From NCBI GenBank assembly GCA_023078555.1, contig CM041198.1, positions 1,538,800 through 1,602,799 of the forward strand: a stretch of DNA of 64,000 nucleotides, given 5' to 3'. The position numbers and the translations under genes are program-made. Below the pieces are notes generated by a model, which was not told the origin of the DNA, searched no databases, and saw only the letters and a list, made by a program, of their open reading frames with translations. The stretch comes from Ulva prolifera (taxonomy: Eukaryota; Chlorophyta; Ulvophyceae; Ulvales; Ulvaceae). This document shows positions 6,734 through 63,646 of the stretch, in pieces. Positions within the stretch are counted from its first letter, which is position 1. Every line of letters begins with the position of its first letter.

Positions 6734-6947
6734 GTTTTCAACGAGGTCCAGATCTGAGACTTCACACCGAGCTTCACAACCGGGTGAACATCTTCAGAGC
6801 TCAAACCTCAGTTGTCAGTCACTCATGTGGCCTTTCCGCAGTATAAAAGCAAGCACTCGCCGAGGAGTCACTAGACTGTCCTCCAGCTGCACAACTGTAT
6901 ACAGTAAATATCCTTTCTCTCTACAGCTTCAACTCTTCAATCAATAT
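6734..6947 (+). promoter_or_regulatory. Promoter and 5'UTR exon, copy 1
   Basis: A TTTTCAACGAGGTCC-like element at 6734 is followed by the TATA box (gTATAAAAGCA) at 6842. About 75 nt of 5'UTR precede the exon end at 6947. The order and spacing of these elements are shared by the array copies. Confidence 0.8.
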
Positions 6948-8731
6948 GTGCGATCCCTGCTCCAGCTACATTGCATGCAGTAGTGTTACTGCTGTGCACA
7001 AGACACTGCAACACTCAGCAATTGATAGTTGAGACATGTCTACACATAGATGAATCATTCTACATTGGCCATAAACTGCTGAGTTGTCTGTCTATCATCA
7101 TGTTACAGGCCTGCCATTGCTCACAGTCATTAGTATTTGATCTGCTGATGATCACACTGCTTACAGCTGAGCAAGTTGTGTGAATCGCGATCGTGTGAAT
7201 TAGACCGGAATTGGCATGACCACTCTATCCTCGCATGACCACTCTGTCCTCGTGGTTGTCTGTTTCATCAACAGCACAATGAAGTCAAACTGAATCAAAC
7301 TCAATCAATCACATGCAACGATGACCTGTCGTATGTGCCCTTGACCTTGACTTGAATGACACCTGCAGGATTTACGCCGCAGCTGCAGTTGGCCTGGTGA
7401 TGGCTGGAGCCGTGATGGCCCCCGAGCCCTCCAGCGCCGCCCTGGCCACCTCCTCCCAGCCCAGCCGTGACCTCCTCTCCAAGACCCCAGACGATGGCGA
7501 GAAGAACGGCGATGAGGGCGACGAGGGCAACGAGGGCCTTGACGGATTCTTGGCCACACGCGGCAACGAGGGCGATGAGGGCGACGAGGGTAATGAGGGC
7601 AATGAAGGGGATGAGGGGGGTGAGGGTGATGAAGGGGACGAGGGCAACGAGGGCAATGAGGGCAACGAAGGCGACGAGGGTGACGAAGGCAATGAGGGGG
7701 AGGAGGGTGATGAGGGTGACGAAGGCGATGAGGGCGGCTCGTTCTCTGGCTTCGAGTCCACAACACTGTCCCGGGTGGAGTGCGTCAGCCAGGCCACTGC
7801 TCAGTCATTCTCAGCCATGGAGGATGCACATGTTGCCGTCATCGCCACCGTGTTTACCGAGTTCTGCCGTGAGGACCTGGAAGAAACATCTGCGGCGGCG
7901 GTCGCCCTTGCTGCTTCAGACTCTGCTTTGGCCTTTGCCCGGGCTGTCGCCTCCACCCAGGCATCCTGCGTGTCCACTGGGAAGGCCTTTGGTTGTGCTT
8001 CCGCATCCGCAATGGCCGAGGCTTGGGCTTCCGCCACCGCTGAGGCGCACGCGACCGCCGTGGCCGCCTCTGCGGAGGAGTGCGAGTGCCTCGCCAAGTC
8101 CCAGGCACTGTCTGTCGGCACAGCATCCACCTTCATCACTCTCGCGGCAGACGCCTTTGCCCGAGCAGAGGTGACCGCATGCTCCGAGGGCGATGCTGCA
8201 TCCTTTGCGGCCGCCTACGCAGACTGCTCTGCGCTCGCGTACGCCACCGTCTGGACCACGGCCATCGCTGAGGCGTTCCTGGAGGGCAACTGCTTCTCCA
8301 GCGAGGTCGCCACCCGCATCCTCGCCGAGACCAGCGGCACATTCGGTGTCATCGAGGGCTGTGAGCGCGATGACTTCTCCTTCGGTGACGCCTTCGGCTC
8401 CACCGGCGGCTCCACCGCCGAGGGCGTACGCTTCTTTGAACACTGGCTGCCTGTATGCCGTGATCACAGCAGTCAACAAACGCGAGGCAATTGTCTTTAA
8501 GCTGCTAATGCACTTTTCGGCAGTGCCTGAGAGCTCGTTGCAACTGTATTGGACCCAGGGCACAGCCACATCGTGGTCCGTGTGCTTGCCTATCCTACAT
8601 GACACTTGCGTGGTTGCAATGCACCAAAGTCTTTGCACATGCACATGTGTACATGATGCCATTGTCTGGCCTGCACTGTCTCTTGCTAATGCCAGGCGCT
8701 CGTTGTGCAGCAGGCCGCTGACCACATCTAG
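6946..8731 (+). CDS. Array copy 1: secreted Gly-X-Glu / Ala-Cys-rich protein
   Basis: Proposed CDS: 6946-6947, 7369-8425, 8711-8731 (359 aa). Exon 1 ends in AT before donor GTGCGATCC. Exon 2 starts with G after ctgcag, giving AT|G ATT TAC, and no in-frame ATG lies just upstream of 7369. The second donor is GTACGC (8426). The last exon, after tgcag, encodes QAADHI-stop. Residues 1-27 (MIYAAAAVGLVMAGAVMA...) look like a signal peptide. Residues 48-124 are Gly-X-Glu triplets (GDE, GNE) with one GFLATR interruption, strongly acidic and collagen-like in spacing but without proline. Residues 125-340 are Ala/Ser-rich and probably helical, with ten Cys. I do not recognise the family; an extracellular or wall role is inferred. 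Copy-specific traits are a GGE triplet and EGNC where others have EGDC. Confidence 0.8.
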
Positions 8732-17160: not shown

Positions 17161-17172
17161 TTCATTCAGCAT
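16967..17172 (+). promoter_or_regulatory. Promoter and 5'UTR exon, copy 2
   Basis: Upstream element TTTTCAACGAGGTCC at 16967, TATA box at 17064, exon 1 ending with AT at 17171-17172. Confidence 0.8.
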
Positions 17173-18844
17173 GTGCGATCCCTGCTCCAGCTACAGTGCA
17201 GTAGATTGCCGTAGTGCGTTAGATAGTCCAAAACACTCAACGTACGTTGCACGTGTACAGTTGAGATATGTGTGCACAGCTTAGATGCAAAGACTGACAC
17301 AGCCCGGTTCTGTTAGGTCATCTGCCAAGCCTCATGCTACATCACAGGATCTGCCATTGCTTGCAATTATGGGATCTGTTATTGATCGCACTGCTTACAG
17401 CAGGCCGTGACAATTGTGTAGGTTGTGTAGTTTGCACCACAACTTGAAAACTGCACTCTGTCTTGTCCATGAGTGTCTTGTCCATGAACAAGTTCATGCT
17501 GAATCAAATGTCACATGCAACAGTGACCTGGCTTATGCACCCGCGAAGCTGACTTGAATGAAACCTGCAGGATTTACGCAGCAGCTACACTTGGCCTGAT
17601 GATGGCCGGAGCCGTGATGGCCCCCGAGCCCTCCAGCGCCGCCCTGGCCACTTCCTCCCAGCCCAGCCGTGACCTCCTCTCCAAGACTCCAGACGACGGC
17701 GAGAAGAACGGCGATGAGGGCGACGAGGGCAACGAGGGGCTTGACGGCTTCTTGGCTACACGCGGCAATGAGGGCGACGAGGGTGATGAGGGTGACGAGG
17801 GCAACGAAGGCGATGAGGGGGATGAGGGTGATGAGAACAACGAGGGGAATGAGGGAGACGAGGGGAATGAAGGCGATGAGGGTGATGAGGGCAACGAGGG
17901 GACGGAGGGTGATGAGGGTGACGAAGGTGATGAGGGCGGCTCGTTTTCTGGATTTGAGTCCACAACACTGTCCCAGGTGGAGTGCGTCAGCCAGGCCACT
18001 GCTCAGTCATTCTCAGCCATGGAGGATGCCCACGTTGCCGTCATTGCCACCGTGTTCACCGAGTTCTGCCGTGAGGACCTGGAAGAAACATCTGCCGCAG
18101 CGGTTGCCCTTGCTGCTTCAGACTCTGCTTTGGCCTTTGCCCGTGCTGTCGCCTCCACCCAGGCCGCCTGCGTGTCCACCGGGAAGGCCTTTGGTTGCGC
18201 CTCCGCGTCTGCCATGGCCGAGGCGTGGGCTTCCGCCACAGCCGAGGCGCACGCGACTGCCGTGGCCGCCTCTGCGGAGGAGTGCGAGTGCCTCGCCAAG
18301 TCCCAGGCGCTGTCCGTCGGCACAGCATCCACCTTCATCACTCTTGCGGCAGACGCCTTTGCCCGCGCAGAGGTGACCGCATGCTCTGAAGGGGATTCCG
18401 CGTCCCTCGCCAGCGCATACGCAGACTGCTCTGCGCTCGCGTACGCCACCGTCTGGACCACGGCCATCGCCGAGGCGTTCCTGGAGGGCGACTGCTTCTC
18501 CAGCGAGGTCGCCACCCGAATCCTCGCTGAGACCAGCGGCACATTCGGCGTCATCGAGGGCTGCGAGCGTGATGACTTCTCCTTCGGCGATGCTTTCGGC
18601 TCCACCGATGGCTCCACCGCTGAGGGCGTACGCTCCTCGGAACACCGGCTGCCTGCACGTCATGATCACATGAGTCAACAGACTGCCTCACAGCCAGGTC
18701 TTGCATGTGCTCGCCTACCCTGCTGACCACGTGCATGGTCGCAACAGAATCTTTGCACGTGAACACATGGTGCCTTTGTTGTCCCTCACTGTCTCTTGCT
18801 GACGCTGGGCTCCCGTTGTGCAGCAGGCCGCTGACCACATCTAG
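17171..18844 (+). CDS. Array copy 2: secreted Gly-X-Glu / Ala-Cys-rich protein
   Basis: CDS 17171-17172, 17571-18627, 18824-18844 (359 aa), organised as in copy 1. Introns are 398 and 196 bp; the second is the shortest in the array. The N-terminus reads MIYAAATLGLMMAGAVMA. The acidic tract contains the DENNEGNEG variant, and the domain boundary reads SQVEC where other copies have SRVEC. The Ala-rich domain has SEGDSASLASAY, shared only with copy 3. If intron 2 were retained, reading would run on to 18726 with a tail unlike any other copy, which supports the spliced model. Confidence 0.8.
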
Positions 18845-24223: not shown

Positions 24224-24434
24224 GTTTTCAACGAGGTCCAGATCTACGAGTTCACACAGAGCTTCAGCCGGTTGAACATCTACAGAGCTGAAATCTCGGT
24301 GGATGCATATGCAGCAACTGTACGGTATAAAAGCAGGCGGTCACCGAGGAGTCACTAAAACGTACTCCAGCCGCACAACTCCCAACTGCATCCATCTACC
24401 TTTCTCTCTGCATCTTCAAGTCTTCATTCAAAAT
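24224..24434 (+). promoter_or_regulatory. Promoter and 5'UTR exon, copy 3
   Basis: TTTTCAACGAGGTCC at 24224, TATA box at 24326, exon 1 ending with AT at 24433-24434 before donor GTGCGATCC. Confidence 0.8.
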
Positions 24435-26176
24435 GTGCGATCCCTGCTCCAGCAACAGTGCATTTCCGTTGCAGCTGTGCATGAGATACTGCAAAACAGT
24501 CAATGTTTCACAGATCACATTTGTGTGCACGGCACACATGCAATTGAATCTTTCAAGACTGTCAGGTCATCTGTCTAGCCTCATGTTACATCAAAGGACT
24601 TGTTGTGGCTTGCAATCATGGAATGTGCTGTTGATCACATTGCTTACAGCAGGCCGTGACAATTGTTGTGTTTAGGTTGCATGGAACTGCGCTGTGTCTT
24701 GTCCATGAGTGTCTTGTTCATGAACAGGTTCATGTTGTATCAAATGGTACATCATGATGCAACATTGATCTGGCTGATGCACCCGTGAAGACTTGAATTA
24801 CTGATGACTTGAATTACACCTGCAGGATTTACGCAGCAGCCGCAGTTGGCCTGTTGATGGCAGGAGCCGTGATGGCCCCTGAGCCCTCGAGCGCCGCCCT
24901 AGCCACCTCTTCCCAGCCCAGCCGTGGCCTCCTCTCCAAGACCCCGGACGACGGCGAGAAGAACGGCGATGAGGGCGACGAGGGCAACGAGGGGCTTGAT
25001 GGCTTCTTGGCCACACGCGGCGATGAGGGCGATGAGGGCGACGAGGGTAATGAGGGCAATGAGGGCAATGAGGGTGATGAGGGTGATGAGGGAGACGAGG
25101 GCAATGAGGGAGACGAGGGCAATGAGGGCGACGAGGGTGATGAGGGCAATGAGGGGAAGGAGGGTGATGAGGGTGACGAGGGCGATGAGGGCGGCTCTTT
25201 CTCTGGCTTCGAGTCCACAACACTGTCCCGGGTGGAGTGCGTCAGTCAGGCCACTGCTCAGTCATTCTCCTCCATGGAGGATGCCCACGTTGCCGTCATT
25301 GCCACCGTGTTTACTGAGTTCTGCCGTGAGGACCTGGAAGAAACATCTGCCGCAGCGGTTGCCCTTGCTGCTTCAGACTCTGCTTTGGCCTTTGCCCGTG
25401 CTGTCGCCTCCACCCAGGCCGCCTGCGTGTCCACCGGGAAGGCCTTTGGTTGCGCCTCCGCATCTGCAATGGCCGAGGCTTGGGCTTCTGCAACCGCCGA
25501 GGCGCACGCGACCGCCGTGGCCGCCTCTGCGGAGGAGTGCGAGTGCCTCGCCAAGTCCCAGGCGCTGTCCGTTGGTACAGCATCCACCTTCATCACTCTT
25601 GCGGCGGATGCCTTTGCCCGTGCAGAGGTGACCGCATGCTCTGAAGGGGATTCCGCATCCCTCGCCAGCGCATACGCAGACTGCTCTGCGCTCGCGTACG
25701 CCACCGTCTGGACCAGGGCCATCGCCGAGGCGTTCCTAGAGGGCGACTGCTTCTCCAGCGAGGTCGCCACCCGCATCCTCGCCGAGACCAGCGGCACATT
25801 CGGCGTCATCGAGGGCTGCGAGCGCGATGACTTCTCCTTCGGTGACGCCTTCGGCTCCACCGACGGCTCCACCGCTGAAGGCGTACGCTCCTCTCAACAC
25901 CATCTGTCTGCATGTCACGATCACTGGCGTCAATAGATGCGAGGCAAATGGATCAAGCTGCTGTTTCATCATGTGGCAGTTCCTGAAAGCTCGTTTCACG
26001 TGTGTTGGACCCAGGGCTCAGCCACATCGTGTACCATGTGCTTGCCTATCCTTCATACCATCTGCGTGGTTGCACCACGGTCTTTGCAGACACACCCATG
26101 ATGCCTTTGTGTACCCTCCGCAGCCTCTTGCTGACGCTGGTCGCCCATTGTGTAGCAGGCTGCTGACCACATCTAG
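24433..26176 (+). CDS. Array copy 3: secreted Gly-X-Glu / Ala-Cys-rich protein
   Basis: CDS 24433-24434, 24826-25882, 26156-26176 (359 aa); introns 391 and 273 bp. The second donor is GTACGC after GAAGGC. The last acceptor is tgtag rather than tgcag, followed by the usual CAG, so the last exon still reads QAADHI-stop. The N-terminus is MIYAAAAVGLLMAGAVMA. The acidic tract lacks the ENN variant and has GKE near its end. SSMEDAH replaces SAMEDAH. Domain layout is as in copy 1. Confidence 0.8.
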
Positions 26177-27692: not shown

Positions 27693-27860
27693 GTGTTACA
27701 AGGACAAAGCAAGCAAGGCATGTAGCACCGCAAGCAAGAACCAGGGGAACCGCAAGCAAGAACCATGGGAACCGCAAGCAAGAACCAGGGGAACCGCAAG
27801 CAAGAACCAGGGGAACCGCAAGCAAGAACCAGGGGAACCGCAAGCAAGAACCAGGGGGCA
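27693..27860 (-). mobile_element. RLE 3' end with a 22-bp tandem repeat
   Basis: The module lies at 27693-27731 (gtgttacaaggacaaagcaa...tgtagcaccgc on plus). It is followed by six units of a 22-bp repeat (ccgcaagcaagaaccagggg plus aa) at about 27726-27857. A single such unit sits beside the module at 21930 and in a variant at 23340, so the repeat expanded here from element sequence. Confidence 0.8.
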
Positions 27861-29620: not shown

Positions 29621-29634
29621 TCTTCATTCAGAAT
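29431..29634 (+). promoter_or_regulatory. Promoter and 5'UTR exon, copy 4
   Basis: TTTTCGACGAGGTCC at 29431 (one change from the others), TATA box at 29526, exon 1 ending with AT at 29633-29634. Confidence 0.8.
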
Positions 29635-31372
29635 GTGCGATCCCTGCTCCAGCTACAGTGCAGTAGTGTTGCTGCTGTGAATCAGATAATGCAAAACAGT
29701 CAACGTTTAACAATTTATAACATCTTATTACAGTAGTATACATTTGTGTGCACAGCATCAATGCAAAGCCTGACAAGACCCGGCACTGATTCTCCCAGTC
29801 ATCTGTCCAGCCTCATATTACATCACCGGACTTGTCATTGCTTGCAATAATGGAATATACTGTTGATCACATTGCTTATCACTGGCCGTGAAATTGTGTA
29901 GACTAGACCAACACTTAAATTGCACTCTGTCTTTCTGAGTGTCTTCCATATTGAGTTAAATCAAATGGCACATGCCACAGTGACCAGGCCTATGCACCCG
30001 TGAAGCTGACTTGAACAACACCTGCAGGATTTACGCAGCAGCCGCAGTTGGCCTGATGATCTCCGGAGCCGTGATGGCCCCCGAGCCTTCCAGCGCCGCC
30101 CTGGCCACCTACTCACAGCCCAGCCGCGAGCTGCTCTCCAAGACCCCAGACGACGGCGAGAAGAACGGCGATGAGGGCGATGAGGGCAACGAGGGGCTTG
30201 ACGGCTTCTTGGCCACACGCGGCAACGAGGGCGATGAGGGCGACGAGGGTAATGAGGGCAACGAAGGCGATGAGGGTGATGAGGGTGATGAGAACAACGA
30301 GGGGAATGAGGGGGACGAGGGGAATGAGGGCGATGAGGGTGATGAGGGCAACGAAGGGACGGAGGGTGATGAGGGTGACGAAGGCGATGAGGGCGGCTCG
30401 TTCTCCGGATTTGAGTCCACAACACTGTCCCGGGTGGAGTGCGTCAGCCAGGCTACTGCACAGTCATTCTCAGCCATGGAGGATGCCCACGTCGCCGTCA
30501 TCGCCACCGTGTTTACCGAGTTCTGCCGTGATGACCTGGAGGAGACCTCGGCAGGAGCCATCGCCCTTGCTGCTTCCGACTCCGCACTTGCCTTTGCCCG
30601 CGCTGTCGCCTCCACTCAGGCCGCCTGCGTGTCCACCGGCAAGGCCTTCGGTTGCGCCTCCGCGTCCGCCATGGCCGAGGCTTGGGCTTCCGCCACAGCC
30701 GAGGCGCACGCGACCGCCGTGGCCGCCTCTGCGGAGGAGTGCGAGTGCCTCGCCAAGTCCCAGGCGCTATCCGTTGGCACAGCATCCACCTTCATCACTC
30801 TTGCGGCAGACGCCTTTGCACGTGCAGAGGTGACCGCATGCTCTGAGGGCAATGCCGCCTCCCTTGCCGCCGCGTACGCAGACTGCTCTGCGCTCGCGTA
30901 CGCCACCGTCTGGACCAGGGCCATCGCCGAGGCGTTCGTGGAGGGCGATTGCTTCTCCAGCGAGGTCGCCACCCGCATCCTCGCCGAGACCAGCGGCACA
31001 TTCGGCGTCATCGAGGGCTGCGAGCGTGACGACTTCTCCTTTGGTGACGCCTTCGGCTCCACCGACGGCTCCACCGCTGAGGGCGTACGCTCTCTCTTGC
31101 ACTCAATGCCAGAATGCTGTGTGCACAGGAGTCGAAAGACTGCCTCAAGGTGCTCCGAGCTGAGTCATACATCGTGTGGCAGCGCCTGAAAGCCCGCGCT
31201 GCCTGCATTGACACAGGTCACAGCCACGTCTTGTGTTTGCCTATCCTGCTGACCACCTGCATGGTTGCACCATAATCCTTGCAGATGTACACATGATGCC
31301 ATGACAGTCACCCCCACCGTATCTTGCCGACGCCAGTCGCCCGTTGTGCAGCAGGCCGCTGACCACATCTAG
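29633..31372 (+). CDS. Array copy 4: secreted Gly-X-Glu / Ala-Cys-rich protein
   Basis: CDS 29633-29634, 30028-31084, 31352-31372 (359 aa); introns 393 and 267 bp. The signal region differs (GLMISGAVMA), as does the next stretch (ATYSQPSRELL). It carries the DENNEGNEG variant. The Ala-rich domain is of the CRDDLEETSAGAIA type, shared with copies 5, 6, 8 and 9, whereas copies 1-3 have CREDLEETSAAAVA. AFVEGD replaces AFLEGD. Its upstream region is the segmental duplicate of copy 2, yet its coding domain belongs to the other group. Confidence 0.8.
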
Positions 31373-36700: not shown

Positions 36701-36742
36701 TGTGGGTGGGACTCCGCCAGCCGCGCCTGCATCGCCTCGCGT
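33709..36742 (-). mobile_element. 5'-truncated RLE retroelement on the minus strand
   Basis: The 3' end with its module is at 33709-33750 and the 5' truncation at about 36742. The target duplication gggtgtcggtgtgt is at 33698-33711 and 36743-36756; the target is G/T-rich, so this duplication is less certain than the one at 1716. The 3'UTR is about 590 nt, like the long copy. Confidence 0.8.
34300..36742 (-). CDS. RLE retroelement protein, truncated within the reverse transcriptase
   Basis: The frame is open from REAMQARLAESHPQ, just after RT motif A, to GHPA-stop at 34300. It keeps GVRQGDPLGPLLFAL, SCHDDTYVQGK, the zinc knuckle CPCGRSGEAGTHSLVC, ERHNLLVETWRR, a Pro/Ala-rich linker and the nuclease core QRGDTLAFFPG...RRKRDKYG. 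Motif A and everything before it are missing, so it cannot be an active RT. The second nuclease Asp is also lost: IGGVCVTH here, IGDVCVTH in the long copy. The frame technically opens further upstream to 36891, but that part reads the 3'UTR of the neighbouring fragment and is not protein-coding. Confidence 0.8.
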
Positions 36743-38301: not shown

Positions 38302-38518
38302 GTTTTCAACGAGGTCCAAATTGGAGGCTCCACACAGAGCTTCACAACCGGTTGAACATCTACAGAGCTCAAACCTCAGGTGTCAGTCGCACATGTGGCG
38401 TTTTTGCAGTATAAAAGCAGGCACTCGCCGAGGTGTCACTAAATCGTCCTCCAGCTGCACAACTGTACACAGTACCCATCTTCCTTCCACTCTACAGCTT
38501 CAACAACTCAGGAAATAT
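38302..38518 (+). promoter_or_regulatory. Promoter and 5'UTR exon, copy 5
   Basis: GTTTTCAACGAGGTCC at 38302, TATA box at 38410, exon 1 ending with AT at 38517-38518 before donor GTGCGATTC. Confidence 0.8.
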
Positions 38519-40410
38519 GTGCGATTCCTGCTCCAGCAACATTGCAGTAGTGCTTTTCCAGTGCACTAGACACTGCAACACTCAGCAGTTGACAGTTGAG
38601 GTGTATATACACATACATGTAGAGACTGTCATGGCCATGAAGTGTTGGATCATCTGTCCACCGGACAAGTTCATTCACCGGACGGCTCACCGTCATTGGA
38701 TCTGCATTACAGCAAGGCATGACGATTGTGTAGGCTATGCCAAAACATAAAAAACACACTCTTTCCTTGTGGGTTTCGCATCAACAGCACAGTGTGAGTC
38801 CGTCACAAACCGTCACATGCAACAGTGACCTGGCTTGTGCACTCGTGAAGTTGACTTGAACGACACCTGCAGGATTTACGCAGCAGCCGCAGTTGGTCTG
38901 ATGATGGCAGGAGCCATGATGGCCCCTGAGCCCTCCAGCGCCGCCCTGGCCACCTCCTCACAGCCCGGCCGTGGCCTCCTCTCCAAGACACCGGACGACG
39001 GCGTGAAGAACGGCGATGAGGGCGATGAGGGCAACGAGGGCCTAGACGGCTTCTTGGCTACACGCGGCGATGAGGGCGATGAGGGTGATGAGGGTGACGA
39101 GGGCAACGAAGGCAATGAGGGGGATGAGGGTGATGAGAACAACGAGGGGAATGAGGGAGACGAGGGCAATGAAGGCGATGAGGGTGATGAGGGCAACGAA
39201 GGGACGGAGGGTGATGAGGGTGACGAAGGCGATGAGGGCGGCTCGTTTTCTGGATTTGAGTCCACAACACTGTCCCGGGTGGAGTGCGTCAGCCAGGCCA
39301 CTGCTCAGTCATTCTCAGCCATGGAGGATGCCCACGTTGCTGTCATCGCCACCGTGTTTACCGAGTTCTGCCGCGATGACCTGGAGGAGACCTCGGCAGG
39401 AGCCATCGCCCTTGCTGCTTCCGACTCCGCACTTGCCTTTGCTCGCGCTGTCGCCTCCACCCAGGCCGCCTGCGTGTCCACCGGCAAGGCCTTTGGTTGC
39501 GCCTCCGCGTCCGCCATGGCCGAGGCGTGGGCTTCCGCCACCGCTGAGGCGCATGCAACCGCCGTGGCCGCCTCTGCGGAGGAGTGCGAGTGCCTCGCCA
39601 AGTCCCAGGCGCTGTCTGTTGGCACAGCATCCACCTTCATCACTCTTGCGGCAGATGCCTTTGCCCGCGCAGAGGTGACCGCATGCTCTGAGGGCAATGC
39701 CGCCTCCCTTGCCGCCGCGTACGCGGACTGCTCTGCGCTCGCGTACGCCACCGTCTGGACCAGGGCCATCGCCGAGGCGTTCCTGGAGGGCGACTGCTTC
39801 TCCAGCGAGGTCGCCACCCGCATCCTCGCCGAGACCAGTGGCACATTCGGCGTCATCGAGGGCTGCGAGCGCGATGACTTCTCCTTCGGCGATGCCTTCG
39901 GCTCCACTGACGGCTCAACCGCCGAGGGCGTACGCTCCCCCTTGCACTCCGTGAATCACAGCAGAATAAAGCAGTCTTTTCAACCTGCTACCGTATGGAT
40001 TCAAAGTGCCTGCACTCACATGCCCTTCTGTCCTTTTGTGAGCAATATCAGGATTGGTAAACACTCCGCGGGGGTGCCGTGGCATAGCTGCTGCATCCCC
40101 CTGCCTGGTGATGACAGCTGTATCATCTCTCTCGGTGAGTCCGGCAAGAACCGCACTGTTCCACACTCATCACTTAACTATTTCATGTGGAGCACTGCCC
40201 CATCCACACATGAATGCCCGCCTCGCTCTGCTGCAATCGTTAATGAGCATCAGTAATGCCCTGTCAATGCAACTGCGGAGTTTACGCGGCTGCCTTCGTG
40301 CAGCTCAGCCCAGGACAGGCTGTGCCCCACACACTTTGCCGCATTTCAGCCCACGGCAACTACCTGACTCTGAGAGGTGTGCTATGCAGCAGGCTGCAGA
40401 CCACATCTAG
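38517..40410 (+). CDS. Array copy 5: secreted Gly-X-Glu / Ala-Cys-rich protein
   Basis: CDS 38517-38518, 38873-39929, 40390-40410 (359 aa); introns 354 and 460 bp. Without the second splice, the frame would run another 109 codons to 40256 through intron sequence with no counterpart elsewhere. The last exon reads QAADHI-stop after atgcag. Its 3' flank (ctctgagaggtgtg... and cccccctgttcga) is shared only with copy 7. Protein differences: MMAGAMMAPEP in the signal region and GVKNGDEG at the start of the acidic tract. It carries the DENNEGNEG variant and a CRDDLEETSAGAIA-type domain. Confidence 0.8.
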
Positions 40411-44025: not shown

Positions 44026-44216
44026 AGGGCGACCTAAAGAAGTTCATAGAGAACTACAGCACCAGTTGAACATCTTTACAGTTCAAAGCTCAATCGCAAA
44101 TGAGGCATCCCTGGGGTATAAAGGCAGGTGGCCAGCTAGTAGTCAGCACAACATCCACCACCTGCACTTCTGATCTTCTTCCTTTCTCTCCACACCCGGC
44201 ACTCTTACATCAACAT
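44026..44216 (+). promoter_or_regulatory. Promoter and 5'UTR exon, copy 6 (type B)
   Basis: GATTTCAACGAGGGCGACC at 44026, TATA box (gTATAAAGGCAGG) at 44117, exon 1 ending with AT at 44215-44216 before GTGCGATTC. The 5'UTR (ccggcactcttacatcaac) is shared with copy 8 and differs from all others. Confidence 0.8.
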
Positions 44217-45775
44217 GTGCGATTCTTCACGCCAGCAGCGTTATTCCTTATGGAATCAAGCATCCATGCCTTACTTTACAATCATCGCTGCAGCTGTACA
44301 TGTCTTGAACTGCATGCTGCTGTCTTGAACTGCATGTTAAGTTACCAGTCCCATTCAATGGGAGCCTTCAATAATCATGCTCACCTCAAGCTGTGCAAAT
44401 TTATGACCTTGGCTATGACTTAACTGGCACCTGCAGGATCTACGCAGCAGCTGCAGTTGGCCTGATGATGGCCGGAGCCGTGATGGCCCCCGAGCCCTCC
44501 AGCGCCGCCCTGGCAACCTCCTCCCATCCCAGCCGTGACCTCCTATCCAAGACCCCAGACGATGGCGAGAAGAACGGCGATGAGGGCGATGAGGGCAACG
44601 AGGGCCTTGACGGCTTCCTGGCCACCCGCGGCAATGAGGGCGACGAGGGTGATGAGGGTGACGAGGGCAATGAAGGCGATGAGGGGGATGAGGGTGATGA
44701 GAACAACGAGGGGAATGAGGGAGACGAGGGCAACGAGGGCGATGAGGGTGACGAAGGCAACGAAGGCAACGAGGGGGATGAGGGTGACGAAGGCGATGAG
44801 GGCGGCTCATTCTCTGGATTTGAGTCCACAACACTGTCCCGGGTGGAGTGCGTCAGCCAGGCTACTGCCCAGTCATTCTCAGCCATGGAGGATGCCCACG
44901 TCGCTGTCATCGCCACCGTGTTTACCGAGTTCTGCCGCGATGACATGGAGGAGACCTCGGCAGGAGCCATCGCCCTTGCAGCCTCCGACTCTGCGCTGGC
45001 CTTTGCCCGCGCCGTCGCCTCCACCCAGGCCTCCTGCGTGTCGACCGGCAAGGCCTTTGGTTGCGCCTCCGCGTCCGCCATGGCCGAGGCGTGGGCTTCT
45101 GCCACCGCCGAGGCGCATGCGACTGCCGTGGCCGCCTCTGCGGAGGAGTGCGAGTGCCTCGCCAAGTCCCAGGCACTGTCTGTTGGCACAGCATCCACCT
45201 TCATCACTCTTGCGGCAGATGCCTTTGCCCGCGCAGAGGTGACCGCATGCTCTGAGGGCAATGCCGCCTCCCTTGCCGCCGCGTACGCGGACTGCTCTGC
45301 GCTCGCGTACGCCACCGTCTGGACCAGGGCCATCGCCGAGGCGTTCCTGGAGGGCGACTGCTTCTCCAGCGAGGTCGCCACCCGCATCCTTGCCGAGACC
45401 AGCGGCACATTCGGCGTCATCGAGGGCTGTGAACGCGATGACTTCTCCTTCGGTGACGCCTTCGGCTCCACCGATGGCTCAACCGCTGAGGGCGTACGCT
45501 CCTCGGAACACTGACTGCCTCTATGTCGTGATCACACAACTCAGCAGAATGCAGTCAACTGCTGTTACACTGAATCGCAGGGCCTAAAAGGTTTCTGTTC
45601 CGTCGTGGCTGGGCACAGGTCATGGGCACGTTCCATGTGCTTACTTAACCTGCCGATCACCTGCGTGGTTGCACCAGAATCTTTACACTTGCACACATGC
45701 TGCCTTAGTGTACCCTCCACTGTCTCTTGTTGACGCCGGGCTCCCGTTGTGCAGCAGGCCGCTGACCACATCTAG
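44215..45775 (+). CDS. Array copy 6: secreted Gly-X-Glu / Ala-Cys-rich protein
   Basis: CDS 44215-44216, 44437-45493, 45755-45775 (359 aa); introns 220 and 261 bp, with the shortest first intron of the array. Differences: SSHPSRDLL before the acidic tract, DENNEGNEG present, and CRDDMEETSAGAIA. The 5' end belongs to the type B promoter group, while the 3' flank is of the common type (gctgaccacatctaggactc). The antisense strand of exon 2 is open for 343 codons, which I regard as a by-product of codon bias. Confidence 0.8.
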
Positions 45776-49138: not shown

Positions 49139-49339
49139 TTCTCAACGAGGACCAGATCTGAGGTTTCACACGGAGCTTCACAACCGCTTGCATATCTACA
49201 GAGCTGAAATCTCAGTGTTCAGTCGCCCATGTGGCATCTCTGCAATATAAAAGCAGGCATGCGCCAAGGAGTCTCTACAACGTCCTTCAACTGCCCACAT
49301 CTACCTCCCTTTCTACAGCTTCAACTGTTCAATCAATAT
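49139..49339 (+). promoter_or_regulatory. Promoter and 5'UTR exon, copy 7
   Basis: TTCTCAACGAGGACC at 49139, TATA box (aTATAAAAGCAGG) at 49246, exon 1 ending with AT at 49338-49339. The donor is GTGCGTTTC, the closest to a consensus GTGCGT in the array. Confidence 0.8.
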
Positions 49340-51250
49340 GTGCGTTTCCTGCTCCAGCACATCCGTTTTAACGTTACAGCAAAGCACTGCAGTGTATTAG
49401 GCACTGCAGCATTCAGTGTTAGATAGTTGCATGATGTATACATCGCATAGATACAATTCCTGACTCAGACACGGACATGAATTGTTTGGTTGACTGTTTG
49501 GTCTCATTCTGTTGTTGATTGCTCACAATCATGTGATCTGCTACTGTGACCATACTTGCAGCAGACCGATACTGTAGGCTGAACCAAAACTTGAGAGCGC
49601 ACTCTGTCGTGAATTTCTTTTGCATCAACAGCAACCCGGGTCCAAATGTAACATACAACAATGCCCCGTCTTCTGTACCCTTGAAGCTGACGTGGACAGC
49701 ACCTACAGGATGTACGCAGCAGCTACAGTTGGCCTGATGATGGCCGGAGCCGTGATGGCCCCCGAGCCCTCCAGCGCCGCCCTGGCCACCTCCTCCCAGC
49801 CTGGCCGCGGCCTCCGCTTTGAGGCCAAGGACGACGGCGAGAAGAACGGCGATGAGGGAGACGAGGGCAATGAGGGGCTCGACGGTTTCTTGGCCACACG
49901 TGGCAAGGAAGGCGATGAGGGCGACGAGGGTGATGAGGGCAATGAAGGCGATGAGGGGGGTGAGGGTGATGAGGGAGACGAGGGCAATGAAGGAGACGAG
50001 GGCAATGAGGGCGACGAGGGTGATGAGGGAAACGAAGGGAAGGAGGGTGACGAGGGCGACGAAGGCGATGAGGGTGGCTCGTTCTCTGGCTTTGAGTCCA
50101 CAACACTGTCCCGGGTAGAGTGTGTCAGCCAGGCCAGTGCTGAGTCGTTCTCAGCCATGAGAGATGCGCACGTCGCCGTTGTTGGCACTGTGTTCACTGA
50201 GTTCTGCCGCGATGACCTTGAAGAAACATCTGCGGCGGCGGTCGCCCTTGCAGCCTTCGACTCTGCGCTGGCCTTTGCCCGCGCCGTCGCCTCCACCCAG
50301 GCCTCCTGCGTGTCGACCGGCAAGGCCTTTGGTTGCGCCTCCGCGTCCGCCATGGCCGAGGCGTGGGCTTCCGCCACCGCCGAGGCGCACGCGACTGCCG
50401 TGGCCGCCTCTGCGGAGGAGTGCGAGTGCCTCGCCAAGTCCCAGGCGCTGTCCGTCGGCACAGCATCCACCTTCATCACTCTTGCGGCGGACGCCTTTGC
50501 CCGCGCAGAGGTGACTGCATGCTCCGAGGGCGATTCCGCCTCCTTCGCGGGCGCCTACGCAGACTGCTCTGCACTCGCATATGCCACCGTCTGGACCAGG
50601 GCCATCGCCGAGGCATTCCTGGAGGGCGACTGCTTCACCAGCGAGGTCGCCACCCGCATCCTTGCCGAGACCAGCGGCACATTCGGCGTCATCGAGGGCT
50701 GTGAACGCGATGACTTCTCCTTCGGTGACGCCTTCGGCTCCACCGATGGCTCAACCGCTGAGGGCGTACGCTCCCCCTTGCACTCATTGGAGTTCCGTGA
50801 AGGACAGCAGAATGAAGTTAGCCGCTCGATTCATCTGCCACCGCGTGAATTCAAAGTGCCTGCACTCACATGTCCTTGTGTCCTTTGTGATTATTAGCAA
50901 AATCGGTAAAAGCTCCGCTGGTGTGCCATGCGATGGATGGTGCATCGCCCTGTCCGGTACTGGCTGATGATTCTAGTCTTCCTGCGGGTGCTGCAAGAGC
51001 TGCGTTGCTCCAGACCCGTTCGTACACCATCTCCTGACGTGTACCTGTAGGTCCACATGCCATGAATGCACCGCCTTGCTCGGCCGCAGCTGTAACTGAG
51101 CAGACGGACCTTCCGGTCGGTGCACCTGCGCGGTCGATGTGGCTACAAACAGGGAATACCTTTGCCTCACTCTCCTTGCTGCACTGTGGCGCACTGCCGC
51201 TTGCTGACTCTGAGAGGTGTGTTATGCAGCAGGCAGCAGACCACATCTAG
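49338..51250 (+). CDS. Array copy 7: secreted Gly-X-Glu / Ala-Cys-rich protein, most divergent
   Basis: CDS 49338-49339, 49709-50765, 51230-51250 (359 aa); introns 369 and 464 bp. Exon 2 begins GATGTAC after ctacag, so the protein starts MMYAAATVGL. The segment before the acidic tract reads RFEAKDDGEK where others have LLSKTPDDGEK. The tract has GKE and GGE triplets and no ENN. The domain start reads QASAESFSAMRDAHVAVVGTV and later AAFDSA and CFTSEVA. Exon 2 is still exactly 1,057 bp. The 3' flank groups with copy 5. Confidence 0.8.
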
Positions 51251-55290: not shown

Positions 55291-55489
55291 ATTTCAACGA
55301 GGGCGACCTAGGGAGTTCATAGAGAACTACAGCATCAGTTGATCATCTGTATAGTTCAAACCTTAATCGTAAATGAGGCATCTCTGGGGTATAAAGTCAG
55401 GCGCCCTGCTGGCAGTCACCACAACATCCACCTCCTGCATTTCTGATTCTCTTCCTTTCTCTCTACAGCCGGCACTCTTACATCAACAT
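55291..55489 (+). promoter_or_regulatory. Promoter and 5'UTR exon, copy 8 (type B)
   Basis: ATTTCAACGAGGGCGACC at 55291, TATA box at 55390, exon 1 ending with AT at 55488-55489. The layout is almost the same as copy 6. Confidence 0.8.
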
Positions 55490-57177
55490 GTGCGATTCCC
55501 TACGCCAGCAGCATTGCATGTTGGCAGCTGGCAGATTTTCACTCTGCGTAAGTCTCCGAGGACTGGCTGTACAGGCTGTACATTTGACTTTATGGTATCA
55601 AGCATACGTAGCTTTCTGTTTAATCATTGCTGTAGATGTTTGAATTGCATGCTAAGTGACAAGTCCCATTCAACTTGAAACTTCGACAATCATGCTCACC
55701 TCAGGCTGTGCAACTTTATGGCCTTGGCGATGACTTGACTAGCGCCTGCAGGATTTACGCAGCAGCTGCAGTTGGCCTGATGATGGCCGGAGCCGTGATG
55801 GCCCCCGAGCCCTCCAGCGCCGCCCTGGCCACCTCCTCCCAGCCCAGCCGTGACCTCCTCTCCAAGACCCCAGACGATGGCGAGAAGAACGGCGATGAGG
55901 GCGACGAGGGCAACGAGGGCCTTGACGGCTTCCTGGCCACCCGCGGCAATGAGGGCGATGAGGGTGACGAGGGCAACGAGGGCAACGAAGGCGATGAGGG
56001 GGATGAAGGTGATGAGAACAACGAGGGGAATGAGGGAAACGAGGGGAATGAAGGTGATGAGGGTGATGAGGGCAACGAAGGGACGGAGGGTGATGAGGGT
56101 GACGAAGGCGATGAGGGCGGCTCATTCTCTGGCTTCGAGTCCACAACACTGTCCCGGGTGGAGTGCGTCAGCCAGGCTACTGCCCAGTCATTCTCAGCCA
56201 TGGAGGATGCCCACGTTGCTGTCATTGCCACCGTGTTTACCGAGTTCTGCAGAGATGACCTGGAGGAGACCTCGGCAGGAGCCATCGCCCTTGCTGCTTC
56301 CGACTCCGCACTTGCCTTTGCCCGCGCTGTCGCCTCCACCCAGGCCGCCTGCGTGTCCACCGGCAAGGCGTTCGGATGCGCCTCCGCATCTGCCATGGCC
56401 GAGGCTTGGGCTTCTGCAACCGCCGAGGCGCACGCCACCGCCGTGGCCGCCTCTGCGGAGGAGTGCGAGTGCCTCGCCAAGTCCCAGGCACTGTCTGTCG
56501 GCACAGCATCCACCTTTATCACTCTTGCGGCAGACGCCTTTGCCCGCGCAGAGGTGACTGCGTGCTCTGAAGGCAATGCCGCCTCCCTTGCCGCCGCGTA
56601 CGCAGACTGCTCTGCGCTCGCGTACGCCACCGTCTGGACCAGGGCCATCGCCGAGGCGTTCCTGGAGGGCGACTGCTTCTCCAGTGAGGTCGCCACCCGC
56701 ATCCTTGCCGAGACCAGCGGCACCTTCGGCGTAATTGAGGGCTGCGAGCGCGATGACTTTTCCTTCGGTGACGCTTTCGGCTCCACCGACGGCTCCACCG
56801 CTGAGGGCGTACGCTCCTCCTAACACCGGCTGCCTGTACTTCGTGATCAAAGCTGCCTCAGAGTTTCTGGTACATCGTGCAGCAGCGCCTGAATGCTCGT
56901 TCAACCTGTGTTGAGCACAGTTCCCAGCGACATCTTGTTGCATGTGCTTGCTGCCAGGAAACGCGCCCACCCGATGCAGTACTACTTTCCTTCGAGAATC
57001 AGGTCATATATATACTTGAGTGCTGATGACTCATCATGAAACTTGCCTATTCTGCAGACCACCTGCGTGGTTACACCAGAACCTTTGCACTTGCACACAT
57101 GCTGCCAGGGTGTACCCTCCACTGTCTCTTGCTGACGCTGGGCGCTCGTTGTGCAGCAGGCCGCTGACCACATCTAG
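55488..57177 (+). CDS. Array copy 8: secreted Gly-X-Glu / Ala-Cys-rich protein
   Basis: CDS 55488-55489, 55752-56808, 57157-57177 (359 aa); introns 262 and 348 bp. Close to copy 6 in promoter, signal peptide and most of the acidic tract (DENNEGNEGNEGNEG here). The domain is the CRDDLEETSAGAIA type, with AAASDS-like variants absent. If intron 2 were unspliced, the frame would stop only four codons past the exon (56823). The last exon has the common QAADHI-stop. Confidence 0.8.
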
Positions 57178-62021: not shown

Positions 62022-62214
62022 GTTTTCAACGAGGTCCCAATCCGAGACTTCGCACAGAGCTTCAGAACCAGTTGAACATCTACAGCTAAAATGTGGCAAC
62101 GCTGCGGTATAAAAGCAGGCGCTCGCCGAGGAGTCACTAACCCATCTTCCAGCTGCAGAACTGTACACAGTGAACATCATCCTTCGTCTCTACAGCTTCG
62201 ATTTCAAACGACAT
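62022..62214 (+). promoter_or_regulatory. Promoter and 5'UTR exon, copy 9
   Basis: GTTTTCAACGAGGTCC at 62022, TATA box at 62108, exon 1 ending with AT at 62213-62214 before GTGCGATCC. Confidence 0.8.
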
Positions 62215-63646
62215 GTGCGATCCCTACTCCAGCAACACTGCAGCAGCAGTGTTGCTGCCAGTACACATGGACACTGCAACACTCAAACACCCAGCACTTC
62301 ATGGTTGAAACATGTCTACGCATAGATGCAAGGACTGGCATGGCCATGAAATGTTAGGTCGTGTGTCTAGCATCATGTTCATTTACGGGGCGCCGTTGCT
62401 CACCCTGCGAGCGTCACAGTCACTGCATCTGCTGTTGATGACACTGCGGTTTTAGGCCAGAGCAAAGCCTGAAATTGCAATCTGTCCTTTTGACTGTTGT
62501 GCGCATCAACAGAGCATCGAGTTCAATTGTCACTTGCAACAATGACCTGTTCTATGTACCCGTGAAGTTGACTTCAATGCCACCTGCAGGATTTACGCCA
62601 CCGCCGCAGTTGGCCTGATGATGGCCGGAGCCGTGATGGCCCCGAAGCCCTCCAGCGCCGCCCTGGCCACCTCCTCCCAGCCCGGCCGCGGCCTCCTCTC
62701 CAAGACCCCTGACGACGGCGAGAAGAACGGCGATGAGGGTGATGAGGGTAACGAGGGGCTTGACGGCTTCTTGGCAACACGTGGCAATGAGGGCGATGAG
62801 GGTGATGAGGGTGACGAGGGCAACGAAGGCGATGAGGGGGATGAGGGTGATGAGAACAACGAGGGCAATGAAGGCGACGAGGGGAATGAAGGCGACGAGG
62901 GTGATGAGGGCAACGAGGGGACGGAGGGTGATGAAGGTGACGAAGGCGATGAGGGCGGCTCTTTCACTGGATTCGAGTCCACAACTCTGTCCCGGGTAGA
63001 GTGCGTCAGCCAGGCCAGTGCTGAGTCATTCTCCGCCATGGAGGATGCCCACGTCGCCGTCATCGCCACCGTGTTTACCGAGTTCTGCCGCGATGACCTG
63101 GAGGAGACCTCGGCAGGAGCCATCGCCCTTGCAGCCTCCGACTCTGCGCTGGCCTTTGCCCGCGCCGTCGCCTCCACCCAGGCCTCCTGCGTGTCTACCG
63201 GCAAGGCCTTTGGTTGCGCCTCCGCGTCCGCCATGGCCGAGGCGTGGGCTTCTGCCACCGCCGAGGCGCATGCGACTGCCGTGGCCGCCTCTGCGGAGGA
63301 GTGCGAATGCCTCGCCAAGTCCCAGGCGCTGTCCGTCGGCACAGCGTCCACCTTCATCACTCTCGCAGCAGACGCCTTTGCCCGCGCTGAGGTGACCGCA
63401 TGCTCCCAGGGCGATGCCGCCTCCTTCGCGGCCGCCTACGCAGACTGCTCAGCGCTCGCGTACGCCACCGTCTGGACCAGGGCCATCGCCGAGGCGTTCC
63501 TGGAGGGCGACTGCTTCTCCAGCGAGGTTGCCACCCGCATCCTCGCCGAGACCAGCGGCACATTCGGCGTCATTGAGGGCTGCGAGCGCGATGACTTCTC
63601 CTTCGGTGACGCCTTCGGCTCCACCGGCGGCTCCACCGCTGAGGGC
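62213..63646 (+). CDS. Array copy 9: secreted Gly-X-Glu / Ala-Cys-rich protein (last exon outside window)
   Basis: CDS so far 62213-62214 and 62590-63646; the first intron is 375 bp. Exon 2 is complete at 1,057 bp and ends at donor GTACGC. No QAADHI-stop exon is seen in the remaining 354 bp. Intron 2 reaches 464 bp in other copies, so it probably lies beyond the window. The N-terminus is MIYATAAVGLMMAG. It has PKPSSA where others have PEPSSA, TGFESTT, and ACSQGDAASF. It shares QASAESF with copy 7 but the TSAGAIA domain with copies 4, 5, 6 and 8, so it is mosaic. Confidence 0.8.

What the first reader, a model, noticed from the sequence alone, without database searches (positions are those of the whole stretch)
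6946..7371. Start codon split by an intron, conserved in nine paralogues
In every copy exon 1 ends ...AT before a GTGCG(A/T)T donor, and exon 2 begins G after a cctgcag or cctacag acceptor. Splicing makes AT|G ATT TAC and opens straight into a signal peptide. No in-frame ATG lies just upstream of exon 2, only TTG or other codons. Because the donor itself starts with G, the unspliced RNA also reads ATG but leads into a short dead-end frame. Translation of the real protein would then depend on splicing. Positions of AT: 6946, 17171, 24433, 29633, 38517, 44215, 49338, 55488, 62213.
Basis: partly seen in the sequence, partly recalled or inferred. Interest (0 to 1): 0.8.

Follow-up and report, generated by a model that had tools for sequence, protein, structure and literature searches.

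The report
Family-wide start codon split by intron
In a large family of secreted, collagen-like proteins of a green seaweed, an intron sits inside the start codon, so the codon that begins the protein is probably assembled only when the RNA is spliced; this is a rare but known kind of gene structure, here kept across dozens of gene copies.

Summary
In detail: all nine copies have AT|GTGCG(A/T)T at the end of exon 1 and CCT(G/A)CAG|G at the start of exon 2, at the stated coordinates. Codon 2 is ATT in seven copies, ATC in one and ATG in one. The nine are one tandem array, not nine independent cases. The same arrangement extends through a dispersed family in this Ulva-like genome: exon 2 was located in 55 of 56 family loci read, and an AT|GT donor assigned in 48 of those 55. 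The 48 introns form 33 clusters without detectable similarity. A fixed rule (TATA box, then ATGTRCG 70-150 nt downstream) hits 36 of 55 loci against 2 of 55 on the opposite strand, and the base at -3, which the rule ignores, is A in 34 and G in 2. Codon 2 is not ATG in 35 of 55 loci, so AT|G is the most plausible start there. Best reading: a constitutive phase-2 intron in codon 1, ancestral to the family, of a rare documented kind. "Translation depends on splicing" follows, as for any frame-breaking coding intron. Regulation is untested; there is no RNA evidence.

The parts
6842..6847 (+). TATA box (TATAAA) of copy 1, 104 nt upstream of the split ATG
   Evidence: an equivalent TATA box lies 92-107 nt upstream in all nine copies
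6946..6947 (+). Copy 1: last two bases of exon 1 (AT of the start codon)
6948..7368 (+). Copy 1: intron 1 (421 nt, GTGCGAT...CCTGCAG)
7369..8425 (+). Copy 1: exon 2 (G of the start codon, signal peptide, G-D/N-E repeats, Ala/Cys-rich domain), up to the inferred intron-3 donor GGC|GTACGC
17171..17172 (+). Copy 2: AT of split start codon
17173..17570 (+). Copy 2: intron 1 (398 nt)
17571..18627 (+). Copy 2: exon 2 (end inferred)
24433..24434 (+). Copy 3: AT of split start codon
24435..24825 (+). Copy 3: intron 1 (391 nt)
24826..25882 (+). Copy 3: exon 2 (end inferred)
29633..29634 (+). Copy 4: AT of split start codon
29635..30027 (+). Copy 4: intron 1 (393 nt)
30028..31084 (+). Copy 4: exon 2 (end inferred)
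38517..38518 (+). Copy 5: AT of split start codon
38519..38872 (+). Copy 5: intron 1 (354 nt)
38873..39929 (+). Copy 5: exon 2 (end inferred)
44215..44216 (+). Copy 6: AT of split start codon (codon 2 = ATC)
44217..44436 (+). Copy 6: intron 1 (220 nt)
44437..45493 (+). Copy 6: exon 2 (end inferred)
49338..49339 (+). Copy 7: AT of split start codon (GTGCGTT donor; codon 2 = ATG)
49340..49708 (+). Copy 7: intron 1 (369 nt, CCTACAG acceptor)
49709..50765 (+). Copy 7: exon 2 (end inferred)
55488..55489 (+). Copy 8: AT of split start codon
55490..55751 (+). Copy 8: intron 1 (262 nt)
55752..56808 (+). Copy 8: exon 2 (end inferred)
62213..62214 (+). Copy 9: AT of split start codon
62215..62589 (+). 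Copy 9: intron 1 (375 nt)
62590..63646 (+). Copy 9: exon 2 (end inferred)

Best explanation
These genes encode secreted proteins: a signal peptide (by appearance), then Gly-Asp/Asn-Glu collagen-like repeats, then an Ala/Cys-rich domain. The organism is an Ulva-like green seaweed. A constitutive GT-AG intron splits their start codon after its second base (AT|G, phase 2 in codon 1). Transcription starts just downstream of the TATA box (inferred). The short exon 1 is 5'UTR ending, most often, CAAC-AT. Splicing at AT|GTRCG and (mostly) TGCAG|G joins AT to G, and translation starts at the joined ATG, straight into the signal peptide. The arrangement is ancestral to the family as far as it was read here. 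It is kept because most members have no other in-frame ATG before the signal peptide's hydrophobic core. If the intron is retained, the same AUG is read into a short frame that ends in the intron, so no secreted protein is made. Shown: the sequence anatomy and its conservation in the family. Inferred: the junction itself, the transcription start and the fate of unspliced RNA.
For: 9 of 9 window copies. Of 56 family loci read, exon 2 with an in-frame AGG boundary was located in 55, and an upstream AT|GT donor was assigned in 48 of those 55 (chosen among candidates of the form ATGTR.G, some by hand). The 48 introns fall into 33 clusters with no blastn similarity (E <= 1e-3 over >= 40 nt). ATGTGCG is the commonest 7-mer in the 1 kb upstream of exon 2 (38 of 55 loci). 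ATGTRCG is in 42 of 55, against 8 of 55 on the antisense strand and a mean of 9.1 (maximum 19) in 100 Markov simulations. Fixed rule, no hand picking: TATA[AT]A 70-150 nt upstream of ATGTRCG in 36 of 55 loci versus 2 of 55 on the reverse complement; the base at -3 is A in 34 and G in 2 of 36, against A in 34 of 202 at other upstream ATGTR sites. Codon 2 is not ATG in 35 of 55 (ATT 16, ATC 14, TTC 2, ATA, TCT, ACT), while the codons after it are conserved, largely by synonymous change, in the nine window copies. At inferred introns 2 and 3 of the same family the donor is GTRCG in 7 of 14 and 24 of 24 loci (the intron-3 search pattern favoured this), and the exon side is AG (12) or CG (2), and GC (22) or GT (2), never AT. 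The first 120 nt of exon 2 are 83-98% identical between window copies, introns 45-79%. The frame after the unspliced ATG is not conserved. 7 of 18 homologous proteins from public contigs read C-R-(I/M/F) just before the signal peptide, as translating TGCAG|G into codon 2 would give.
Against: There is no RNA evidence. In 7 of 55 loci no donor was assigned (L029, L035, L041, L053, L057, L062, L064); two of these (L029, L035) have only about 1.1 kb of upstream DNA held, and L062 has a possible AT|GTGAG not counted. L055 has no recognisable exon-2 boundary, and that of L041 is doubtful. 19 of 55 loci fail the fixed rule. In 20 of 55 loci codon 2 is itself ATG and could be the working start. In 21 of 55 loci (none in the window) an in-frame ATG lies within the open stretch just upstream of exon 2. 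The three Ulva mutabilis gene models found (P0007-P0009) do not show the arrangement; P0008 reads G, not R, before its internal M. Genome-wide word counts give no clear support outside the family.
Confidence: 0.88

Rival explanations
1. An ordinary leader (5'UTR) intron. The real start is an ATG in exon 2 (codon 2 where it is ATG, otherwise an internal Met such as codon 12), and the AT|G is incidental.
For: Codon 2 is ATG in 20 of 55 loci. Leader introns exist in Ulva: the U. prolifera actin1 leader intron lies at -172 to -27 and its deletion lowers promoter strength (PMC5972938, passages including the abstract).
Against: 35 of 55 loci lack ATG at codon 2. Codons 3-10 are conserved at the protein level in the nine window copies, so translation starts before the internal Mets. 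17 of the 20 loci with ATG at codon 2 still keep AT|GT. The upstream ATG has A or G at -3 in 36 of 36 rule-defined cases.
Confidence: 0.05
2. The ATG of exon 1 starts a real short coding exon (MCDPCSS...), and a donor further downstream joins it to exon 2.
For: The first ~30 nt of the intron are alike among the nearest copies.
Against: Outside close duplicates little but what GTRCG dictates is shared in the following peptide, an indel shifts the frame within the first five codons between window copies, and the 48 introns form 33 clusters without similarity.
Confidence: 0.03
3. Transcripts start inside the intron, and translation begins at an intronic in-frame ATG or at the near-cognate ATT/ATC/ATA codon 2.
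For: In-frame upstream ATG in 21 of 55 loci, and ATT, ATC or ATA at codon 2 in 31 of 55.
Against: No such ATG in any of the nine window copies, and scattered positions elsewhere. The conserved TATA box lies upstream of exon 1. Four loci have codon 2 = TTC, TCT or ACT, one of them (L041) with a doubtful boundary.
Confidence: 0.04
4. A special case of the best explanation rather than its opposite: splicing at AT|G is regulated, and intron retention is used as an off switch for the secreted protein (compare splice choice at the EBNA-LP start of Epstein-Barr virus).
For: Unspliced RNA keeps the same AUG in the same context and the frame ends inside the intron in 47 of 48 loci, after 6-87 codons. 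Splicing choice generates the EBNA-LP start codon (PMC12451641, passages).
Against: Nothing that I saw in the sequence points to regulation; the intron body is not conserved, and I did not search systematically for alternative sites. Any frame-breaking intron would do the same.
Confidence: 0.1

Closest known systems
Introns disrupting the start codon (phase 1 or 2 at codon 1); Nielsen & Wernersson 2006, PMC1626468
   Same: Intron inside the ATG. The survey counts such introns and calls them 'relatively rare, especially in plants' (section 6 seen in full; other passages).
   Different: Here the split is phase 2, occurs in genes with signal peptides, and is kept in dozens of paralogues. None of my searches listed an account of such a family.
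Start-codon introns (phase 0, directly after ATG) and the Drosophila cuticle-protein intron at position 5 (PMC1626468, section 6)
   Same: Intron at the very beginning of the coding region. The cuticle case is a set of signal-peptide proteins with the intron a few codons after the start.
   Different: Phase 0 and outside the ATG; in 80 of 88 of the Drosophila cases it is the gene's only intron, whereas this family shows signs of introns 2 and 3.
EBNA-LP of Epstein-Barr virus
   Same: The AUG is made by a splice junction (PMC12451641, passages).
   Different: There, alternative splice sites decide whether the AUG forms; here one conserved donor and acceptor are seen, and alternatives were not searched for.
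Ulva prolifera actin1 leader intron (PMC5972938)
   Same: First intron near the start, downstream of a putative TATA box, in an Ulva gene; its removal lowers expression (passages).
   Different: It lies wholly in the 5'UTR, 27 nt before an intact ATG.
Collagen-like genes of Ulva (the U. compressa paper PMC9266709 cites 28 in U. mutabilis; passages)
   Same: Copy 1 matches Pfam Collagen PF01391 (36.3 bits, cut-off 27.2).
   Different: The repeats are Gly-Asp/Asn-Glu without proline, and the Ala/Cys-rich domain has no Pfam or NCBIfam match. Whether these are among the 28 was not tested.

Membership tests
Intron disrupting the start codon (phase 2, codon 1) | Intron lies between the second and third base of the initiator ATG | tested here: met
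   By sequence: 9 of 9 window copies; assigned in 48 of 55 family loci
Intron disrupting the start codon (phase 2, codon 1) | GT-AG borders of the host's usual type | tested here: met
   GTRCG donor also at inferred introns 2 (7 of 14 loci) and 3 (24 of 24; search pattern favours it) of the family; 45 of 55 acceptors are TGCAG|G, and all end AG|G by the selection used
Intron disrupting the start codon (phase 2, codon 1) | No other usable in-frame start in exon 2 before the signal peptide | tested here: inconclusive
   True for 35 of 55 loci (8 of 9 in the window); 20 of 55 have ATG at codon 2
Intron disrupting the start codon (phase 2, codon 1) | Splice junction seen in RNA | not testable with these tools
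   No transcript data available
Leader (5'UTR) intron | Intact ATG downstream of the intron starts the protein | tested here: not met
   Not met in 35 of 55 loci, where codon 2 is not ATG and, in the window copies, codons before the next Met are conserved; cannot be excluded in the other 20
Start-codon intron, phase 0 | Intron directly after an intact ATG | tested here: not met
   The frame of exon 2 needs its first G as third base of the start codon in 9 of 9 window copies
Splicing-switched start codon (EBNA-LP type) | Alternative splicing decides whether the AUG is formed | not testable with these tools
   No RNA data; alternative splice sites were not searched for
Collagen-like protein | Gly-X-Y repeats above the Pfam Collagen cut-off | tested here: met
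   PF01391, 36.3 bits against cut-off 27.2, best stretch residues 65-122 of the copy-1 exon-2 translation

The most novel reading that the evidence does not exclude
The split AT|G is kept by selection as a gate: unspliced or mis-spliced RNA still offers the same AUG in a strong context, which draws ribosomes into a dead-end frame, and regulated retention of intron 1 sets the output of a whole secreted matrix-protein family. The retention of AT|GT in 17 of the 20 loci where codon 2 is already ATG is what such selection would leave, but simple inertia explains it too.
Probability: 0.12. Interest if true: 0.65.

Novelty: new member of a known kind. Interest (0 to 1): 0.42.

Why it matters
Introns inside a start codon are reported as relatively rare (PMC1626468). 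Here one is kept across dozens of paralogues whose introns have diverged beyond recognition, while codon 2 varies between ATG and other codons. That makes it a natural series for asking whether AT|G introns are merely tolerated or give a splicing-dependent control of translation. It also warns that gene finders that need an intact ATG will tend to mis-annotate the family: 7 of 18 public homologues carry what look like intron-derived residues before the signal peptide, and others (such as P0013 and P0016) start at an internal methionine.

Tried and rejected
Genome-wide use of the arrangement. Word counts on both strands, each with its own reversed pattern in brackets: CAACATGTGCG 153 (41), CAACATGTGCC 117 (49), ACACATGTGCG 201 (95), CAACATGGTGCG 34 (7). 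Every word exceeds its reversed pattern, so that control is poor; against the matched words (donor base changed, or start context changed) there is no clear excess. TATAAA-N72-102-ATGTGCG gives 75 hits against 42 for the reversed pattern; 18 lie in the family's C3 cluster and many others are one repeat. So I treat it as a family trait; other genes with the arrangement are not excluded.

Intronless (fused) copies as proof of splicing: four exact matches to ATGATNTACGCNGCNG, none looking like a family member; diverged fused copies would be missed.

Relatives by N-terminus: none at E <= 1 (235 candidates). Structure: AlphaFold2 model of the Ala/Cys domain at mean pLDDT 47, not used further; PDB by sequence, one hit at E 0.84. 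Branch-site-like motif upstream of the acceptor: 33 of 55 against 88 of 275 control windows, weak. The pattern was uninformative. PMC5686732 was looked at for the EBNA-LP start, and its passages did not describe it.

Codon 2 on a tree of 49 loci: at least 11 changes between ATG and non-ATG by parsimony (shuffled labels mean 14.9, lowest 11), root state undecided, so I cannot say which came first.

Control detail: the sense strand could use a TATA box anywhere upstream in the locus, the reverse-complement control only within the same 1.65-kb stretch.

Full report
What was checked. The nine reported positions were read directly. In 9 of 9 copies exon 1 ends in AT before GTGCG(A/T)T, and exon 2 begins with G after CCTGCAG (8) or CCTACAG (1), with introns of 220-421 nt. 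Joining AT to G gives M-(I/M)-Y-A-... and an uninterrupted frame of 357-461 codons. Two details need correcting: codon 2 is ATT in seven copies, ATC in 44215 and ATG in 49338, and the nine copies are a tandem array, 73-90% identical over 2.2-3.9 kb to their best other copy, so nine is not nine independent observations. That AT followed by GT spells ATG is unavoidable and is not evidence.

Where it is. The window is part of an 88.9-Mb genome in 44 contigs. The only named relatives of the protein in the search are three Ulva mutabilis gene models, at 48-56% identity. The U. compressa genome paper gives 57.3% G+C (PMC9266709, table passage), and the window is 54-67% in 4-kb steps. I call it Ulva-like; the species was not determined. 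The protein has a start that looks like a signal peptide (no predictor was run), Gly-Asp/Asn-Glu repeats that match Pfam Collagen (36.3 bits, cut-off 27.2), and a ~224-residue Ala/Cys-rich domain without a Pfam or NCBIfam match. An AlphaFold2 model of that domain was of low confidence and was not used.

The wider family. A search of the genome with the domain gave 120 exon-level matches on several contigs. I read 56 loci: 30 returned by that search, 20 and 6. Exon 2 with an in-frame AGG boundary was located in 55 of the 56 (L055 was not recognisable; for five loci with broken frames I placed it by the signal-peptide signature; that of L041 is doubtful). In 48 of 55 an upstream AT|GT donor was assigned among candidates of the form ATGTR.G, some by hand where several existed. 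Introns of these 48 fall into 33 clusters with no blastn similarity between clusters at E <= 1e-3 over 40 nt, so the conserved AT|GTRCG is not just copied sequence.

Is it more than chance? Three tests do not rest on hand picking. First, ATGTGCG is the commonest of all 7-mers in the kilobase upstream of exon 2 (38 of 55 loci). ATGTRCG occurs in 42 of 55 loci, against 8 of 55 on the antisense strand and a mean of 9.1, maximum 19, in 100 Markov simulations. Second, a fixed rule (TATA[AT]A 70-150 nt upstream of ATGTRCG, within 1,700 nt of exon 2) hits 36 of 55 loci, one site each, against 2 of 55 on the reverse complement (the control was confined to the same 1.65-kb stretch). 19 of 55 loci fail the rule. 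Third, the base at -3 of those 36 ATGs is A in 34 and G in 2, whereas other ATGTR sites in the stretches of the 48 assigned loci have A in 34 of 202. An A at -3 is the usual context of a eukaryotic start codon (recalled), and the rule did not ask for it. So the ATG spelled by AT|GT very probably marks a translation start. Members are related, so these loci are not all independent; taking one locus per intron cluster, -3 is A in 27, G in 5 and C in 1 of 33 (assigned sites).

Why AT|G and not another start. Codon 2 is ATG in 20 of 55 loci, but ATT (16), ATC (14), TTC (2), ATA, TCT or ACT in the other 35. The following codons are conserved, largely through synonymous changes, in the window copies, so translation begins upstream of the internal methionines. 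None of the nine window copies has an in-frame ATG in the open stretch before exon 2. Elsewhere 21 of 55 loci do, at scattered positions, and for those a start in retained intron cannot be excluded by sequence alone. The alternative that the exon-1 ATG opens a real coding exon fails: outside near copies the peptides after ATG share little but what GTRCG dictates.

Splice sites. At inferred intron 2 (14 loci) the donor is GTRCG in 7, GTGAG in 3, GTGCT in 3 and GTGTG in 1, with AG (12) or CG (2) on the exon side. At inferred intron 3 (24 loci) it is GTACG in all, with GC (22) or GT (2) on the exon side. The two sites were found by translated motifs that require Val, and for intron 3 Val-Arg, so part of this uniformity is built in. 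Within that limit GTRCG is a common donor here, and AT on the exon side is seen only at intron 1, as expected if AT is held by the start codon rather than by splicing.

Other contigs. Of 18 homologous proteins retrieved, 7 (P0005, P0006, P0010, P0011, P0012, P0017, P0018) were predicted through the boundary and read Cys-Arg just before codon 2, as TGC-AGG would; codon 2 is I in four, M in two, F in one. The other 11 start at or after codon 2, or are gene models without this signature. The three U. mutabilis models (P0007-P0009) do not show it, and P0008 has Gly rather than Arg before its internal Met. A search with the N-terminus found nothing at E <= 1. DNA of these contigs was not available, so conservation outside this genome is only indirect.

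How it works, and what is inferred. The simplest account is a constitutive phase-2 intron in codon 1, ancestral to the family: TATA box, short 5'UTR exon ending most often CAAC-AT, intron, then G plus signal peptide. The spliced RNA starts at AT|G. In unspliced RNA the same AUG leads to 6-87 codons ending inside the intron in 47 of 48 loci, and to 160 codons reaching exon 2 in one. So the secreted protein would not be made without splicing. That dependence is shared with any intron that breaks a reading frame, and I saw no sign that splicing is regulated. 17 of the 20 loci with ATG at codon 2 still keep AT|GT, which could mean selection or simply inertia. On a tree of 49 loci codon 2 changed between ATG and non-ATG at least 11 times, and the root state is undecided.

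Genome-wide. CAACATGTGCG occurs 153 times against 41 for its reversed pattern, but the matched words CAACATGTGCC (117 against 49) and ACACATGTGCG (201 against 95) behave alike, so there is no clear excess of start context plus donor. TATA plus ATGTGCG is largely this family, one repeat and scattered hits. I therefore treat the feature as a family trait, without excluding other genes. No fused, intronless family copy was found with an exact junction pattern.

Known or new. Nielsen and Wernersson (PMC1626468; section 6 seen in full, other parts as passages; [quoted passage not shown] A splice-made start codon is also described for EBNA-LP (PMC12451641, passages). Searches for split start codons and for Ulva with start codon and intron listed no account of such a family; that says only that these searches of this library did not show one. 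The finding is a new member of a known, rare kind, notable for its retention across a large family.

Noticed in passing
G000:C8:2443273-2494378 (L069): Six one-mismatch matches to the exon-2 boundary motif, five of them spaced exactly 5,090 bases apart. Only the sixth was read: a collagen-like open frame with a degenerate signal peptide after the same CRIYATG start and no Ala/Cys domain.
   Followed up: partly
window:8426-8430 and the equivalent sites of the other eight copies: Conserved GTACGC after ...STAEG looks like the donor of a further intron; the final coding exon was not located. L058 on C1 runs on without it to a short C-terminus.
   Followed up: partly
L040-L052 and L057, on C2, C3, C4 and C5: Fourteen loci show a further inferred intron (donor often AAG|GTGCG) in the Ala/Cys domain that the window copies lack.
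   Followed up: partly
window:2872-4436 and 35207-36741: Dispersed repeats (72% identical, inverted), the first within a 1234-codon open stretch with a weak reverse-transcriptase match below the Pfam cut-off, between the gene copies.
   Followed up: no
G000, e.g. C1:9970327-9970415: A repeat beginning TATAAAGAAAGCTGACGG occurs in many near-identical copies on several large contigs, perhaps a mobile element.
   Followed up: no
window:11675-11960 and 27727-27857: Tandem repeats outside the family genes: 102-bp unit x 2.8 and 22-bp unit x 6.0.
   Followed up: no
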